From Methylobacterium brachythecii (GTDB lineage: Bacteria > Pseudomonadota > Alphaproteobacteria > Rhizobiales > Beijerinckiaceae): a DNA stretch of 64,000 bases. Of this stretch, positions 32,717 through 39,814 are shown in pieces. The notes beneath the pieces were generated by a model. It was not told the DNA's origin, ran no database searches, and was given only the letters and a program-made list of their open reading frames with translations. Positions within the stretch are counted from its first letter, which is position 1. Every line of letters begins with the position of its first letter. Location: positions 124,001-188,000 of the forward strand of contig NZ_JACIDN010000006.1 in NCBI RefSeq assembly GCF_014196345.1, in the 5' to 3' direction. A program made the translations under genes and the position numbers.

Positions 32717-34333
<1,617 letters not shown>

Positions 34334-34350
34334 GTTGCTGAAAATGAAGA

Positions 34351-34386
34351 GGCGGCAGCGAGGAAGGGGAGATCCTCGCTGCCGCC
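34351..34386. terminator. Bidirectional terminator between pckA and peptide gene 1
   Basis: GGCGGCAGCGAGGA (34351-34364) and TCCTCGCTGCCGCC (34373-34386) form a perfect 14-bp stem with an eight-base loop, centred between the convergent stops of pckA and the peptide gene. On the minus strand it is followed by a T-rich TCTTCATTTTC. Confidence 0.85.
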
Positions 34387-34406
34387 GATCGCTGAGGCGA
34401 TACGGC

Positions 34407-34640
34407 TTACTTGCCGAGGCCGACGCTGCCGGTCACGCCGCCGACGACGCCACCCACCGCACCGAGCACGGTGCCGAGCAGGCCGCTCACGAGGCCGCCG
34501 ACCTGATCGACCGTGCCGGACACGGCACCGAGTTCCTGGCTCAGGTCCACCGTGGCGCCAACGCCCACGCCGAGGCCACCACCGACGGCATCCAGCTCCG
34601 AAGCGTTGAGCTCACGGATGGTCTCGATGTTCTGCGACAT
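34407..34640 (-). CDS. Double-glycine-leader peptide 1 (candidate bacteriocin/microcin precursor)
   Basis: A 77-residue precursor. The leader (residues 1-21 or 1-22) contains RELNASELDAV followed by Gly20-Gly21-Gly22, the classical double-glycine processing site recognised by C39 peptidases; compare the ELDxVxGG consensus of class II bacteriocin and colicin V leaders. The predicted mature part of about 55 residues is rich in Gly, Val and Leu, with several GxxxG repeats ([20 protein letters not shown]), one basic C-terminal Lys and no cysteine. A strong ribosome-binding site (AGGAGA) precedes ATG 34640; longer in-frame starts are unlikely. Its leader and upstream box are nearly identical to those of peptide 2. 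Bactericidal function is inferred from the exporter nearby. Confidence 0.75.
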   Translation of the reverse strand: MSQNIETIRELNASELDAVGGGLGVGVGATVDLSQELGAVSGTVDQVGGLVSGLLGTVLGAVGGVVGGVTGSVGLGK

Positions 34641-34651
34641 AAATATTCTCC
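34632..34651. repeat. 20-bp start-site repeat, copy 1
   Basis: The 20 bases covering the ribosome-binding site and first three codons of peptide 1 are identical to 35490-35509 at peptide 2. This is a duplicated translation-initiation box and shows that the two peptide genes are paralogues or are co-regulated. Confidence 0.9.
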
Positions 34652-35279
34652 TGAAATGATAGGCTATAAGCAAGGTATTCTTTTGAGAATATCCCGCTTC
34701 AAACCTCATCACGAAGCGCTGGTTACGCGTCGCCCATCAACGGGACCATTCCCGGAGGCAGGGATCAACCCAGTTTCCTGCCACGTTTATGGCAGGTCCG
34801 GCGGATCTGATCTTTCCCAGGCCGTCCGGAGCCATCGCAAGCGATGGCCCATCCGACCGATACCGTTGAGGTTTTCAGGATCGTTGCACCGCAGCATCGG
34901 GCCGCTATCGTCTGCCCGGGCAAACCGTCGAGCGCTTGCGAGTTAGCCGCCGTAAGCCACTGTCAATGCAGCATTTTCCCAGACATGTGCGTCAGCACGC
35001 CGCAGGCTAAGGTTGCGCGGCGGCAAATTTGGGCACCGAGGAAGCCTGCAAACGGCCACGCTCGATCCGGGGCTACGCGCCAACACCGTAGTATTCTTGC
35101 CGAAATTCGGATCCGGCGCGGCGAGCCGTCAGGTTGCCGGATGGCCAACCGAATTGGGCGCGAGCTGGTTATGAGCCCAGCCGAACCTTGGCAGAAAAAA
35201 GGCAAATCAGGGCAGCGAGGCTCGGTCCGACCAACAGCCGATGCTGAGGCTGCTGGCCGGATCCGGGGCTGACTGCCGT
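34641..35279. other. Intergenic region between the two peptide genes
   Basis: About 640 bases with an A+T-richer patch just upstream of peptide 1 (34650-34700), presumably its promoter. The open frame at 34844-35272 (plus strand) has no ribosome-binding site or family resemblance. No immunity-type membrane protein or RNA gene was recognised. Confidence 0.5.
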
Positions 35280-35498
35280 CTATTTCCTTGCGAGGCCGCC
35301 GAGCGAGCCGAGCAGGCCGCCCGCGAGGTCCTCGACGAGGCCGCGCACGTTCGCGACGCCTCCGGCCGGGATCGAATGGACGGTGTCGATCAATTCGTTG
35401 AGGCCGCCGACGCTCACCGAGAGCGCGGACTGGCCACCGCCGACCTGATCGAGTTCGGTCAGGCTGAGCTCACGAGTGGTCTCGAAGTCCTGCGACAT
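35280..35498 (-). CDS. Double-glycine-leader peptide 2 (candidate bacteriocin/microcin precursor)
   Basis: A 72-residue precursor whose leader aligns position by position with that of peptide 1: MSQ at the start, RELSLTELDQV, then Gly20-Gly21-Gly22. The predicted mature part is about 50 residues (QSALSVSVGG start, LLGSLGGLARK end). It has GG-containing GxxxG-like segments, a short charged region (VRGLVED) and no cysteine, so no disulfide or lanthionine bridges. ATG 35498 is preceded by the same GGAGAATATTT box. It diverges from the HlyD-type adaptor gene 636 bases away. Two different GG-peptides beside one exporter recall two-peptide (class IIb) bacteriocins, but this is inference. Confidence 0.75.
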   Translation of the reverse strand: MSQDFETTRELSLTELDQVGGGQSALSVSVGGLNELIDTVHSIPAGGVANVRGLVEDLAGGLLGSLGGLARK

Positions 35499-35509
35499 AA
35501 ATATTCTCC
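35490..35509. repeat. 20-bp start-site repeat, copy 2
   Basis: Identical to 34632-34651: ribosome-binding site and first three codons of the peptide gene. Confidence 0.9.
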
Positions 35510-36134
35510 GGTTCGATCCATGCACGACGAGGATTTAACCTCAGTCGCGGAAGAAGCATCTGCTCGTCTTCTTCTGAAAACATTCCAACACGCAAAATAC
35601 AAAGCTGCAACACGACCGGATTTTAGCCACATCGATTGCTTCGGCGGTCACGAACGCGTGAATTTGAGAGAATTTCTCTCTCCTTCATCTCAGGCAACGG
35701 CGCAGTGAACGACGGTCACGGCTCATAAGGCGCCCCTCGATCCAACCGGCATCACCGCAGCCTGAACGCATGGGAAAGACGCTCCAACACGTTCCGATCG
35801 ATGGGCTTTTCTGAAAGGAGTGCGGCGGGGTGCCGCAGCCGTCCATTGCGTCGAAGTCTCAAGTTCGCGATCATCGAGAGAAGAAATTTGCAGATAATTC
35901 AGTTTCAGAACCCCCGCAGATCGATCTTCCTGCCGACCCTATAGTTCTCGGCAGAAACATCCTCGTTTACATTGAGACCGTGGGCGGTTTTCTCCTCGGA
36001 AATTCAACCGAGCCGGCCGCCGGGACCTGCACATGACTGCAGGACATGCGCTCGGATTGCGTGGCGGTGCCTCTTGTGAGAAGCGGGCGCCGGGAAACGC
36101 CCCGCGCAGTCCCTGCGCGTCGTCACAGGTGTTC
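35499..36134. other. Divergent intergenic region between peptide 2 and the export operon
   Basis: 636 bases, clearly A+T-richer than the flanking genes between 35510 and 35720 and around 35870-36000. It must contain the promoters for peptide 2 (minus) and the adaptor/exporter pair (plus). A GTG-started 68-codon frame (35830-36036) exists, but it has no recognisable features and only a doubtful ribosome-binding site (AAGGAG about 14 bases upstream). It is left uncalled. Confidence 0.5.
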
Positions 36135-37424
36135 ATGTCCACGCCGCTGTTCCGCAAAGAGGTTTCCGAGGCGCGCCGCAATGCGTGGCTCGGCGAGGCA
36201 CAGATCGTCCAACCCCTTCCGATCCGCATCGTGGCCTATGTCTGCATCGGTCTCGTCGTCGCGACGCTCCTGTATGCCGTGCTTGGCAGCTACACCCGCC
36301 GCGTCCATGCCCAGGGGCTGCTGGCTCCGGATGTCGGACTGATCACCGTGGCCAGCCCCGTCGCGGGGCGCGTCAGCGCCTCGGGCGTCAAGGAAGGCGA
36401 TCGGGTCGAGCAGGGTCGGCTTCTCTATACCGTGGACGTCGATGCGGTTTCGGCCAGCGGGCCGACACAGGAGCGCGTCATCGCGCAGCTCGGCCGGCAG
36501 AAGGAGAGCATGGAGGAGCAGCGCCGCCTGCGCGCCTCCATGGCGGGCACCGAGAAGCGCTCGCTACAGGAGCAGATCGCCAATCTCGAAGCCCAATCCG
36601 ACCAGATCAAGCAGCAGGTCGAGCTTCAGGAGAAGCTGGTGCCGCCGCTCAAGGCCCGCGCCGATGAGCTGGCCTCCGCCGTCTCGCGGGGCTTCGCCCG
36701 CGCGGCGGATTTCCAGAACCAGAACTATCTCTTCATGCAATCGAGCTCGCAGCTCGCGCAGTTCCGTCAGGGCGCCCTTCAGATCGAGGGCAAGCTCGGT
36801 GACCTGAAGGCGCAGTTCGCCTCCTTCGACGAGAAGCTCGCCAAGGATCTCGCCGAGATGGATCGTGCCGCCGCGCAGCTCGAACAGCAGAAGGCGGAGA
36901 GCGAGGCCAAACGGGCCATCGAGATCCGCGCCCCGGAAAAGGGCATCCTCACCTCGATCCGCGCCCAGCCCGGCCAGAGCGTCGCGGCCGGCGCCACCCT
37001 GCTGACCCTGTTGCCGAGCGAGGGCCGGCTCCAGGCGAACCTGTTCGTGGATTCCTCGGCCATCGGCTTCATCGAGACCGGCGCCAGTGTGATGCTGCGT
37101 TACGCCGCCTTCCCGTTCCAGCGCTTCGGCCTCTATCGGGGCGTCGTCACCGAGGTGACCCGCGCTCCGCTCGAAGGCGAGGACGCCCCCGAGGAAATGA
37201 AGCGGAAGAGCAACGGCGGCGTCTACCGCATCGTGGTCAAGCCCGACGAGGACGGCGTCATGGCCTATGGCGAGCGGCGCCGGCTGGAGGCCGGGATGCG
37301 CGTCGAGGCCGATATCGCGCTGGAGCAGCGCGCCCTCTACCGCTGGCTGCTCGACCCGCTCTACCGCGTGAAGCGCAGCGTCGACCTCGTAACGGATGGC
37401 GGCAGTCAGGGGCTCGCCAAGTGA
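36135..37424 (+). CDS. HlyD/CvaA-type periplasmic adaptor of a peptide exporter
   Basis: A 429-residue membrane-fusion protein. One transmembrane helix lies at ~32-52 (VAYVCIGLVVATLLYAVLG), then a split barrel-sandwich/lipoyl domain (ITVASPVAGRVSASGVKEGDRVEQG), a long coiled-coil hairpin (~100-265, rich in Gln/Glu/Ala), the second lipoyl half (IRAPEKGILTSIRAQPGQSV) and a beta-barrel domain. The pattern is that of CvaA/HlyD adaptors that link an ABC exporter to an outer-membrane TolC channel. ATG 36135 begins MSTPLFRKEV, as in CvaA-like proteins. Its stop overlaps the GTG of the exporter gene by four bases, so the two are translationally coupled. Confidence 0.88.
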   Translation: MSTPLFRKEVSEARRNAWLGEAQIVQPLPIRIVAYVCIGLVVATLLYAVLGSYTRRVHAQGLLAPDVGLITVASPVAGRVSASGVKEGDRVEQGRLLYTVDVDAVSASGPTQERVIAQLGRQKESMEEQRRLRASMAGTEKRSLQEQIANLEAQSDQIKQQVELQEKLVPPLKARADELASAVSRGFARAADFQNQNYLFMQSSSQLAQFRQGALQIEGKLGDLKAQFASFDEKLAKDLAEMDRAAAQLEQQKAESEAKRAIEIRAPEKGILTSIRAQPGQSVAAGATLLTLLPSEGRLQANLFVDSSAIGFIETGASVMLRYAAFPFQRFGLYRGVVTEVTRAPLEGEDAPEEMKRKSNGGVYRIVVKPDEDGVMAYGERRRLEAGMRVEADIALEQRALYRWLLDPLYRVKRSVDLVTDGGSQGLAK

Positions 37425-39592
37425 AGCTCCTCGACGGCATCTCCCAGGCCGGCCTGCAATTCGGATTCGGCCGGCGCCTGCCCGTGATCCTGCAGGCGGA
37501 GGCGGCCGAATGCGGCATGGCCTGCCTCGCCATGTTGCTCGGCTTCCACGGCCGCGAGACCGATCTCGGAGCCCTGAGGAGGCGTCACGCCCTATCGCTC
37601 AAGGGCATGACGCTGAGGAACCTGATCGACCTGTCCGGCACGATGGGCCTGGCGACGCGCGCTCTGCGGATCGAGCTGAAGGATCTCGCTCGCCTCAAGA
37701 CGCCGTGCATCCTGCACTGGGGCCTCAACCATTTCGTGGTGCTGGCCTCGATCAATCGCGGCGGCATCGTCATCCACGATCCCGCCCGCGGCCGGCGCAG
37801 GCTGACCCTGGACGAGGCCTCGCGCGATTTCACCGGCGTCGCGCTGGAGGTGACGCCGAACCAGAGTTTCGTGCGCGAGAAGACGGTCAAGGGCCTCGCG
37901 CTGGGGGATCTCTTCCGAAACCTGCGCGGTATCCGCCCGGCGATGATGTCGATCCTGGCGCTCTCGATCGGCATCGAACTCGTCAACATCCTGATGCCGA
38001 TCGCCTCGCAGATCGTCATCGACGAGGTCATCGTCAACGCGGATCTCGACCTGCTCCTCGTCGTCGCGCTCGGGCTCGCGCTGCTGCTGCTGATACAGCT
38101 CGCGCTCGGCGTCGCCCGGACCTGGGCGATCATGCTGACGGGCACCAAGCTGAACTATCAATGGTCCGGCAGCTTGTTCGACCATCTTTCGCGGCTGCCC
38201 CTCGACTACTTCGAAAAACGGCATGTCGGCGACGTAATCTCGCGCTTCGGCTCGCTCGCCACGATCCAGAAGGGTCTGACCACCGACCTCGTCCAGGCCG
38301 TGCTCGACGGCGTGATGTCGATCGGCATGCTGATCATGCTGTTTCTCTACGGCGGCTGGTTGGCCCTGGTGGCCCTGCTCTCCACCGCGGTTGCAGCCGG
38401 CCTGCGGGTGGCCGCCTACAACGCCTACAAGGAGGGCACCGAGGAGGCGATCGTCGCCGAGGCGCGCCAGCAGACGCATTTCATCGAGACCGTGCGCGGC
38501 ATGGCGAGCGTGAAGCTGCTGGGGCTGCGCGAGCGCCGCCGCGGCACCTGGATGAACCAGTTTGTCACCGCGCTGAACGCCCGGCTGCGGCTCCAGCGCC
38601 TCGACCTCGTCTTCGGCCGCGCCAGCGAGCTGCTGGCCGGCGCCGACCGGCTGATCCTGCTCGTGCTCGGCGCGCGCGCCGTGATCGACCAGTCGATGTC
38701 GCTCGGCATGCTCGTGGCCTTCCTGACATACCGCGACCAGTTCTCGAGCCGCGTCGGCAACCTGATCAATTCCGGCTTCCAGCTGCGCATGCTGAACGTG
38801 CAGACCGATCGGCTCTCCGACATCGTCATGACCGATCCGGAAGAGCCGGCCCAGGCAGTCCCGAAGGCCGTGGAGGCACCGGCGATCCCCGGCGCAGCGC
38901 GCGGCTCCATCGTCGCGAACGGCCTGTCGCTGCGCTATGGCGCCGACGAGCCCTGGGTGTTTCGCAATCTCAGCTTCCAGGTCGCACCGGGGACCTGCTT
39001 CGCCATCATCGGCCCCTCGGGCTGCGGCAAGAGCTCGGTGATGAAAATCCTGATGGGCCTGCTCTCGGCGACCGAGGGCAACGTCCTGATCGACGGGCGC
39101 GACATCAAGGCGGTGGGAGCGGCCGCATATCGCAAGCGCATTGCCGGCGTGATGCAGAGCGATGGGCTGTTCGCCGGCTCCATCGCCGAGAACATCGCCT
39201 GTTTCGACGAGCATCCCGACCCGGCTTGGATCGAGGAATGCGCCGCCCGCGCGGCGATCCTCAACGATATCCGCAAGACGCCGATGGGCTTCGAGACGCT
39301 CGTCGGCGACATGGGTTCGACCCTGTCCGGCGGTCAGAAGCAGCGCGTCATCCTCGCCCGCGCGCTCTACCAGCGCCCAGAAATCCTCTTCCTCGACGAG
39401 GCGACCAGCGCGCTGGACGAGCCCACAGAGGCGGCGATCGCCCAGGCCCTACGCGAGTTCAAGATGACCCGCGTCATCGTCGCCCACCGCCCGGCGACCA
39501 TCGCGCATGCCGATCACGTGCTGGAATTCGAGCGGTTGCTGCCGGCGCCGGGACCGGCGCTTCCCGCAAGGGCTGCCGCACCGGTCGCGTAA
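37421..39592 (+). CDS. Peptidase-containing ABC exporter (C39 domain, bacteriocin/microcin type)
   Basis: A 723-residue PCAT-type transporter with a GTG start overlapping the adaptor stop. The N-terminal C39 peptidase (1-~140) has oxyanion Gln25, catalytic Cys31 (AEAAECGMAC), His104 (GLNHFVVL) and Asp120 (IHDPARG), so the protease should be active. The membrane domain (~165-455) has about six helices. The ATPase domain (~495-710) has Walker A GPSGCGKSS (531-539), signature LSGGQKQR (635-642), Walker B ILFLDEA and the H-loop AHRPATI. Such proteins cleave double-glycine leaders and export the mature peptide. Two candidate substrates are encoded just upstream on the opposite strand. The outer-membrane factor is not in the window. 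Confidence 0.92.
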   Translation: MKLLDGISQAGLQFGFGRRLPVILQAEAAECGMACLAMLLGFHGRETDLGALRRRHALSLKGMTLRNLIDLSGTMGLATRALRIELKDLARLKTPCILHWGLNHFVVLASINRGGIVIHDPARGRRRLTLDEASRDFTGVALEVTPNQSFVREKTVKGLALGDLFRNLRGIRPAMMSILALSIGIELVNILMPIASQIVIDEVIVNADLDLLLVVALGLALLLLIQLALGVARTWAIMLTGTKLNYQWSGSLFDHLSRLPLDYFEKRHVGDVISRFGSLATIQKGLTTDLVQAVLDGVMSIGMLIMLFLYGGWLALVALLSTAVAAGLRVAAYNAYKEGTEEAIVAEARQQTHFIETVRGMASVKLLGLRERRRGTWMNQFVTALNARLRLQRLDLVFGRASELLAGADRLILLVLGARAVIDQSMSLGMLVAFLTYRDQFSSRVGNLINSGFQLRMLNVQTDRLSDIVMTDPEEPAQAVPKAVEAPAIPGAARGSIVANGLSLRYGADEPWVFRNLSFQVAPGTCFAIIGPSGCGKSSVMKILMGLLSATEGNVLIDGRDIKAVGAAAYRKRIAGVMQSDGLFAGSIAENIACFDEHPDPAWIEECAARAAILNDIRKTPMGFETLVGDMGSTLSGGQKQRVILARALYQRPEILFLDEATSALDEPTEAAIAQALREFKMTRVIVAHRPATIAHADHVLEFERLLPAPGPALPARAAAPVA

Positions 39593-39598
39593 GGCCGC

Positions 39599-39724
39599 TC
39601 AGCGCGCGCCTTCGCCGACCACCGAGAACGGTCCCCAATAGGCGGGGTAGGCGCTCTGCGGAGCCGAGCCGTCGTTCACGTAGCCGAGCATCGCCTGGCG
39701 CAGGGTCTCAGCGCGACCGACATG
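39599..39724 (-). pseudogene. 3' remnant of a CHAT-domain (caspase-like) protein gene
   Basis: Reading the minus strand up to the stop at 39601-39599, the last 40 codons give [16 protein letters not shown] and [15 protein letters not shown]. This is the ending typical of CHAT-domain proteins, where the final strand packs behind the protease core. The frame stays open a little further upstream (to ~39800), but with no CHAT His or Cys motif, and ybaB begins immediately after. This is a truncated relic, only seven bases from the exporter stop, and indicates deletion or recombination at this edge of the segment. Confidence 0.6.
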
Positions 39725-39814
39725 GCGAACCAGGCACAGGTTCAGATGGAGCGAGGATGCCGGGCGTGCGACATCACAAGCGTCCTCACGCCGTTTCGCG
39801 ACTCCGGCGCGAAA

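What the first reader, a model, noticed from the sequence alone, without database searches (positions are those of the whole stretch)
34407..39592. Complete, apparently uncharacterised double-glycine peptide (class II bacteriocin/microcin) system
Seen: two short genes with matching leaders (RELxxxELDxV then GGG), and next to them a CvaA/HlyD-type adaptor and an ABC exporter whose C39 peptidase keeps Gln25, Cys31, His104 and Asp120. Known: C39-ABC exporters cleave double-glycine leaders and export the core peptide through an adaptor plus TolC. Inferred: the two peptides are the substrates and may be antimicrobial or signalling peptides. Such systems are well described in enterobacteria and Gram-positives but little explored in plant-associated alphaproteobacteria. 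No immunity gene was recognised, which is unusual and worth explaining.
Basis: partly seen in the sequence, partly recalled or inferred. Interest (0 to 1): 0.88.

Follow-up and report, generated by a model that had tools for sequence, protein, structure and literature searches.

The report
Glycine-zipper peptide export cassette, Methylobacterium
A plant-associated bacterium carries two small peptide genes beside the one machine that should cut and export them; many relatives share the set, its main peptide looks built to stick to itself, and no protective immunity gene was found with it, so it may not be an ordinary bacterial toxin.

Summary
The window (a Methylobacterium genome) holds two small genes, pepA (77 aa) and pepB (72 aa), with matching double-glycine leaders, then hlyD and a C39-peptidase ABC exporter with Gln25, Cys31, His104 and Asp120. 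These are the only two such leaders found in the genome, beside its only close C39 exporter. Across 111 genus genomes strong PepA matches and the close exporter occur in exactly the same 43. Both cores show purifying selection. The cassette is largely vertical but has changed place: in the window clade it sits in a pckA-ybaB junction that is empty in relatives. No hydrophobic immunity-like small gene recurs in 37 loci; an AraC-type regulator lies near pep in 22 of them, not in the window. PepA's core holds a 31-residue uninterrupted glycine zipper, like the Caulobacter Cdz contact-killing peptides, yet stays conserved (mean 74% ungapped identity; exporter 81%), unlike variable bacteriocin cores. 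Best reading: a dedicated Cdz-like export cassette for a self-assembling peptide. Toxicity is unproven.

The parts
34407..34640 (-). pepA: 77-aa precursor, 22-aa double-glycine leader, 55-aa glycine-zipper core; PepA-type gene found in 43 of 43 genus genomes with the close exporter
35280..35498 (-). pepB: 72-aa precursor, same leader type, different 50-aa core with a short zipper; 4 of 43 cassette genomes have a second, weaker match that fits it
36135..37424 (+). hlyD-type membrane fusion protein (start 36135, MSTPLF, judged more likely than 36033)
37421..39592 (+). C39 peptidase-containing ABC exporter (PCAT) with Gln25, Cys31, His104, Asp120
35550..35574 (-). possible 5'-leader hairpin of pepB (7-bp arms GAAGAAG/CTTCTTC, 11-base loop); inverted repeats at similar places precede many relatives' pep genes
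   Evidence: weak: the best local fold of this leader lies nearer the start codon

Best explanation
A dedicated, chromosomal peptide-export cassette that works like the Cdz system of Caulobacter. The C39 domain of the exporter cleaves both leaders after the double glycine (inferred from the families), and the cores leave through the ABC exporter, the HlyD adaptor and a TolC-type channel encoded elsewhere (inferred). The hydrophobic PepA core self-associates through its GxxxG ladder on the producer's surface or in a contacted membrane (inferred from sequence), with PepB as an optional partner. The most likely outcome is contact-range action at the cell surface. Whether that kills neighbours is not shown; without a linked immunity gene the producers would have to be insensitive by other means, or the peptide is not toxic.
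For: The same 43 of 111 genus genomes carry the close exporter and PepA; 0 of the other 68 has a strong PepA match. A peptide with this leader stands beside hlyD-abc in 36 of 37 loci. Only two such leaders and one close C39 exporter in the genome; TolC-family genes present. PepA core: 6 overlapping GxxxG in a 31-residue stretch free of P and charge; length and leader end meet the Cdz-like criteria of PMC5380434 (section read), which also reports mostly single toxins, 14% with two, and immunity genes hard to find. PepA core dN/dS 0.038 (3 window-clade loci) and 0.163 (8 Methylorubrum-type loci).
Against: No immunity-like gene, whereas cdzI is essential in Caulobacter (passage). The paper describes substantial variation of Cdz-like proteins and frequent horizontal acquisition; here cores are conserved and inheritance is largely vertical. 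PepB has only a 2-GxxxG zipper, and a proline and charges in its core. The charged or polar C-terminal tail is a residue or two at best. AlphaFold of PepA is low confidence (pLDDT 65, pTM 0.30). No direct comparison with CdzC/D was possible.
Confidence: 0.55

Rival explanations
1. A non-toxic surface peptide: the exported glycine-zipper core builds an adhesive or protective cell-surface assembly, and the cassette is a domesticated bacteriocin-type exporter with a constrained structural product.
For: No hydrophobic immunity candidate recurs in 37 loci; PepA core under purifying selection, near the exporter in conservation, while the neighbouring AraC-type regulator averages 50% ungapped identity in 20 loci; cassette distances correlate with dnaX distances, Mantel r 0.635, p 0.0002, 13 genomes.
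Against: 68 of 111 genus genomes do without it; changes of place fit an accessory trait; glycine zippers with double-glycine leaders are what Cdz toxins have.
Confidence: 0.25
2. A class II microcin-like diffusible bacteriocin whose immunity gene is unlinked or unrecognised, or that needs none because the producer's target is insensitive.
For: PCAT, membrane fusion protein and double-glycine precursors are the microcin set (PMC10233263 passages); weak similarity of PepA to the E492 microcin model (E 0.011, below cut-off); the same review mentions double-glycine peptide bacteriocins of Bacteroides with no immunity protein.
Against: The review states that each class II microcin has a self-immunity protein, typically encoded immediately adjacent; microcin cores are described as highly variable (PMC9746304 passage), here conserved; the core is very hydrophobic.
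Confidence: 0.12
3. A secreted signalling peptide sensed by the producer, with the nearby AraC-type protein as its regulator.
For: AraC-type gene within about 0.9 kb of pep in 22 of 37 loci; core conservation would fit a shared signal.
Against: No AraC gene beside the cassette in the window clade and no close copy in the window's genome (best 35 bits); the AraC protein diverges much faster than the peptide; a 55-residue hydrophobic zipper is a poor diffusible signal.
Confidence: 0.08

Closest known systems
Cdz system (CdzABCDI), Caulobacter crescentus, PMC5380434
   Same: Type I exporter with adaptor; one or two small glycine-zipper proteins with leaders ending in GG; alphaproteobacterium
   Different: No CdzI-like gene found; PepA core conserved across species and largely vertical rather than variable and often horizontally acquired; AraC-type neighbour in 22 of 37 loci. 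Sequences were not compared directly
Class II microcins (e.g. V, E492, H47), PMC10233263
   Same: Double-glycine precursor, C39-ABC exporter, HlyD-type adaptor, TolC-family channel in the genome
   Different: No immunity gene found; conserved core; the described microcins come from Enterobacteriaceae (review abstract, listed)
PCAT1, solved C39-ABC exporter (PDB 4ry2; the name PCAT1 is recalled, the entry is titled ABC-type bacteriocin transporter)
   Same: Match over exporter residues 12-700 (E 3.7e-80)
   Different: Used here only as a structural yardstick

Membership tests
Cdz-like systems (criteria of PMC5380434, section read) | Precursor of 60-151 residues | tested here: met
   77 and 72 aa; 62-79 aa in the 22 PepA rows
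Cdz-like systems (criteria of PMC5380434, section read) | Leader ending in G[G/A/S] | tested here: met
Cdz-like systems (criteria of PMC5380434, section read) | One or two glycine zippers flanked but not interrupted by proline or charge | tested here: met
   PepA: 6 GxxxG in 31 residues; PepB only 2 in 13 residues
[quoted passage not shown]
   PepA ends GLGK, PepB LARK; some relatives end without charge
Cdz-like systems (criteria of PMC5380434, section read) | Type I secretion genes within 10 kb | tested here: met
Cdz-like systems (criteria of PMC5380434, section read) | Small membrane immunity protein (CdzI in Caulobacter; only sometimes seen elsewhere) | tested here: not met
   No hydrophobic small ORF recurs in 37 loci, 1.9 kb upstream of hlyD and 1.2 kb downstream of abc; 5 loci are cut short on one side
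Cdz-like systems (criteria of PMC5380434, section read) | Surface-retained aggregates and contact-dependent killing | not testable with these tools
   needs bench work
Cdz-like systems (criteria of PMC5380434, section read) | Match to a CdzC/CdzD profile | not tested
   CdzC/D sequences were not at hand
Class II microcins (five parts, PMC10233263 passages) | Double-glycine precursor, PCAT with catalytic residues, membrane fusion protein | tested here: met
Class II microcins (five parts, PMC10233263 passages) | TolC-family outer membrane channel in the genome | tested here: met
   8 of 10 OEP matches over cut-off, in 4 frames on contigs C3, C4, C7
Class II microcins (five parts, PMC10233263 passages) | Adjacent immunity gene | tested here: not met
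Class II microcins (five parts, PMC10233263 passages) | Antibacterial activity | not testable with these tools
   needs bench work

The most novel reading that the evidence does not exclude
A bacteriocin-type export cassette that has become a stable trait of many Methylobacterium lineages: it exports a conserved glycine-zipper peptide with no immunity partner, which self-assembles on the cell surface (amyloid-like) and serves adhesion, protection or kin contact instead of killing.
Probability: 0.25. Interest if true: 0.75.

Novelty: new variant of a known kind. Interest (0 to 1): 0.52.

Why it matters
C39 exporters are usually read as bacteriocin machines. Here the same leader-exporter logic is tied to a conserved glycine-zipper peptide with no immunity gene found, in 43 of 111 sampled genomes of the genus, whose members commonly live on leaves (recalled). 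That makes a sharp question testable: does a Cdz-like peptide act by contact without a dedicated immunity protein, or has such a machine been turned to building the cell surface?

Tried and rejected
Spurious short ORFs: rejected, because purifying selection, co-occurrence and leader specificity agree. Lantibiotic or modified peptide: Pfam L_biotic_typeA only E 0.055 and 0.14, under its cut-off; apart from pep, hlyD, abc, frames overlapping them and the AraC gene, no ORF of 40 aa or more recurs across more than a minority of the 37 loci (those minority neighbours were not annotated). NHLP system: the exporter's best NCBIfam hit is an NHLM model but far below cut-off (479 against 853 bits). Gene in one fixed site: rejected; a rough clustering gives 14 left-flank and 13 right-flank groups, some of which may be one context split in two, and loci with short flanks fall out.

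Led nowhere: the first leader regex was one residue short and found 0 (corrected). AlphaFold of PepA gave low confidence and Foldseek against PDB nothing below E 8. PDB sequence search with the PepA profile: best E 0.68. Rfam at gathering thresholds: no match in 34300-36300. PepA tblastn in plasmids found nothing, although the M. bullatum record H1 has both the exporter and two PepA-type peptides; so that search is blind here, probably because of its low-complexity filter. The M. mesophilicum/Xylella transcriptome paper PMC10673610 (passages) had nothing on this cassette.

Limits: the PepA profile was built partly from genomes later searched, so the positives are partly circular; the 0 of 68 is not. 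In order and class searches at most 19 or 15 candidates per genome were scored, so absences there are weak. In one search the four-locus group mixes tandem pepA copies. In one search eight of 37 loci were left out of the identity averages (L057 truncated, L067 without pepA on its stretch, L068 without a PepA-type match, and L061, L064, L069, L071, L077 from outside the genus); counted with gaps the mean identities are 0.659 for the core and 0.794 for the exporter, and cores are at least as similar as exporters in only 42 of 406 pairs. In one search several intergenic ORFs do recur within single subgroups of 3 to 9 closely related loci; none is hydrophobic enough for a membrane helix, but I did not test whether any is coding. 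The immunity search would miss a soluble, fast-evolving, unlinked or larger immunity protein, and 5 of 37 loci are cut short on one side.
Full report
WHAT IS THERE. In the window, pepA (34407-34640, -) and pepB (35280-35498, -) encode 77- and 72-aa precursors with the leaders MSQNIETIRELNASELDAVGGG and MSQDFETTRELSLTELDQVGGG; hlyD (36033 or, from its MSTPLF start, 36135 to 37424, +) and a C39-ABC exporter (37421-39592, +) follow. Gln25, Cys31, His104 and Asp120 are present. Pfam gives Peptidase_C39 9.4e-34, ABC_membrane 6.3e-33, ABC_tran 1.2e-31 and HlyD_3 3.6e-15. The peptides match no Pfam or NCBIfam family above its cut-off; the nearest are the E492 microcin and CTB bacteriocin models, both E 0.011 for PepA. 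A solved C39-ABC exporter (PDB 4ry2) matches exporter residues 12-700 at 3.7e-80.

PEPTIDES BELONG TO THIS EXPORTER. A leader-only profile finds in the own genome these two places at 1.9e-14 and 1.7e-12; the next is 1.23. The exporter query finds one full-length match in the own genome; each of the other 68 matches begins at query residue 163 or later, that is, without the C39 part, and a C39-domain query gives one match. In 111 genus genomes the C39-domain query has a match of at least 73% identity in 43; the PepA profile has E of 1.2e-25 or better in the same 43 and in none of the other 68 (lists compared by hand). Four of the 68 have weak PepA matches (G074, G080, G035, G092; E 4.9e-4 to 0.008), three of them inside frames of 727-729 aa; I take them as chance. 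28 of the 68 hold only more distant C39 exporters, 55% identity or less. In 42 of the 43 PepA lies on the same contig within about 3 kb of the exporter; in G076 it is on another contig, with the weaker second peptide match beside the exporter. Among 37 loci (window, L039-L072, L074, L077) a peptide with this leader stands just upstream of hlyD in 36; L068 has instead a different glycine-rich peptide downstream. The more distant exporters (L073 and L092 Asaia, 58%, and others) show no PepA, except that L082 has two glycine-zipper peptides with 41-42% matches. Outside the genus the profile matches one further genus of the order (3 genomes, two of them with a stop inside the match; 6 of 297 genomes in all) and, in a class-wide draw, 3 of 385, one of them weak; named loci include Methylopila and Beijerinckiaceae bins.

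ONE OR TWO PEPTIDES. 31 of the 43 genomes show one PepA match; 8 have two strong ones (tandem copies); 4 (G000, G076, G078, G110) have a second, weaker match, E 1.1e-14 to 4.6e-10, which in the window is PepB. Other second matches, at E 0.001 or worse, are not counted. PepB was read directly in the window, L039, L046 and L067. Between the window and M. jeotgali (L046), whose exporter is 79% identical, the first 47 core residues of PepB differ at 6.

SELECTION. Pooled NG86 dN/dS for the PepA core is 0.163 in 8 Methylorubrum-type loci (exporter 0.121), 0.038 in 3 window-clade loci (exporter 0.076) and 0.067 in 4 others that mix tandem copies (exporter 0.083); two-locus groups give 0.069, 0.318 (4 non-synonymous and 5 synonymous changes only), 0.141 and 0.112. 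For the PepB core, 6 pairs of 4 sequences give pS 0.34-0.56 and pN 0.06-0.11; its leader is less constrained. In 29 loci mean ungapped pairwise identity is 0.737 for the PepA core, 0.796 leader, 0.810 exporter (0.659, 0.796 and 0.794 counting gaps); for the AraC neighbour 0.496 in 20 loci. The core equals or beats the exporter in only 42 of 406 pairs. So the core is constrained, somewhat less than the exporter, and I see no sign of the diversification described for microcin cores (PMC9746304 passage) or Cdz-like proteins (PMC5380434 section).

WHERE IT SITS. Of the 37 loci, recR-pckA-[cassette]-ybaB-dnaX is seen only in the window, L039 and L040, and its right half in L067, whose contig ends beside the cassette. 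A ybaB search gave matches in 57 of 59 genus genomes and loci for 25 of them. In 9 of these 25 pckA lies directly beside ybaB, about 70 to 415 bases between the matched parts; 6 of the 9 genomes carry the cassette elsewhere (G029, G008, G130, G004, G128, G002) and 3 have no close exporter. Two of the 25 are the window and G025, with the cassette there; 14 show neither arrangement within the stretch held. The cassette has thus changed place. Its sequence distances nevertheless track those of dnaX in 13 genomes (Mantel r 0.635, p 0.0002), with the same nearest neighbour in 8 of 13: largely vertical inheritance with relocation, not excluding some transfer.

NO IMMUNITY GENE; A REGULATOR. ORFs of 25 aa or more within 1.9 kb upstream of hlyD and 1.2 kb downstream of abc were clustered across 37 loci. 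Clusters in 3 or more loci are the peptides, frames overlapping them or hlyD or the AraC gene, downstream neighbours of particular contexts, and several intergenic ORFs confined to subgroups of 3 to 9 close relatives. Mean best-window hydropathy is 1.50-1.76 for the peptide clusters and 1.51 for a downstream neighbour of 157-210 aa in 12 loci; no other cluster exceeds 1.25. So no small membrane protein recurs. An AraC-type regulator (HTH_18, HTH_AraC) lies within about 0.9 kb of pep in 22 of 37 loci. The window's genome has no close copy (best 35 bits).

MECHANISM. The PepA core has a 31-residue stretch without P or charge holding 6 overlapping GxxxG; PepB has 13 residues with 2. Caulobacter CdzC and CdzD are small glycine-zipper proteins exported by a type I system and held on the producer's surface, CdzC in SDS-stable aggregates; they kill on contact cells without CdzI (PMC5380434: abstract, passages and sections 13, 17, 18 and 32 read). 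Of that paper's four sequence criteria PepA meets three; the polar tail is inconclusive. I infer cleavage after GG, export via HlyD and one of the TolC-family proteins, then self-association. Shown: anatomy, linkage, conservation. Not shown: expression, cleavage, assembly, any effect on other cells. AlphaFold suggests a helix from 33 to 74 but with low confidence.

WHAT IS KNOWN. Searches for Methylobacterium with bacteriocin and double-glycine (0 papers), for two of Methylobacterium, bacteriocin, peptidase C39 (314 papers, 12 listed), for CdzC with glycine zipper (11 papers, 10 listed) and for double-glycine leaders, Alphaproteobacteria and peptidase-containing transporters (10 papers, 9 listed) showed no functional study of this cassette in what I saw. 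The M. [quoted passage not shown] passages); whether that is this cassette was not checked. The word Methylobacterium does not occur in the Cdz paper's main text; its supplementary list could not be read.

VERDICT. A real, conserved export cassette; a new variant of the Cdz-like kind in sequence, with two departures (no immunity gene found, constrained core) that leave its purpose open.

Noticed in passing
window 35550-35574 (-) and upstream of 44 pep genes in 36 loci: By eye, a promoter-like TTGA-N16-TA(C/G)CTT pattern is often followed by an inverted repeat whose arms differ between lineages but still pair. Best local folding z is -1 or lower for 26 of 38 first-copy pep genes and 0 of 6 downstream tandem copies; the rows are related, only 25 shuffles each, and the best fold is not in each case that repeat. 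May be a 5' mRNA hairpin or an operator; no Rfam match.
   Followed up: partly
window about 39599-39751 (-): Between the exporter and ybaB lies a frame resembling the end of a CHAT-domain protein (Pfam CHAT E 0.027, below cut-off), not seen at this place in L039, L040 and L067: perhaps a gene remnant of a later event.
   Followed up: partly
L082 2183-3113: A Gallionellaceae bin has two glycine-zipper peptides with SGG leaders, one on each strand, near a 45%-identical C39 exporter: perhaps another Cdz-like system.
   Followed up: no
L085 4254-9758, L089 4132-4763: Robiginitomaculum bins carry several RELxxxEM-type leaders ending in VSGG with long, different cores in the same stretch as a C39 exporter: possibly several substrates for one exporter.
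   Followed up: no
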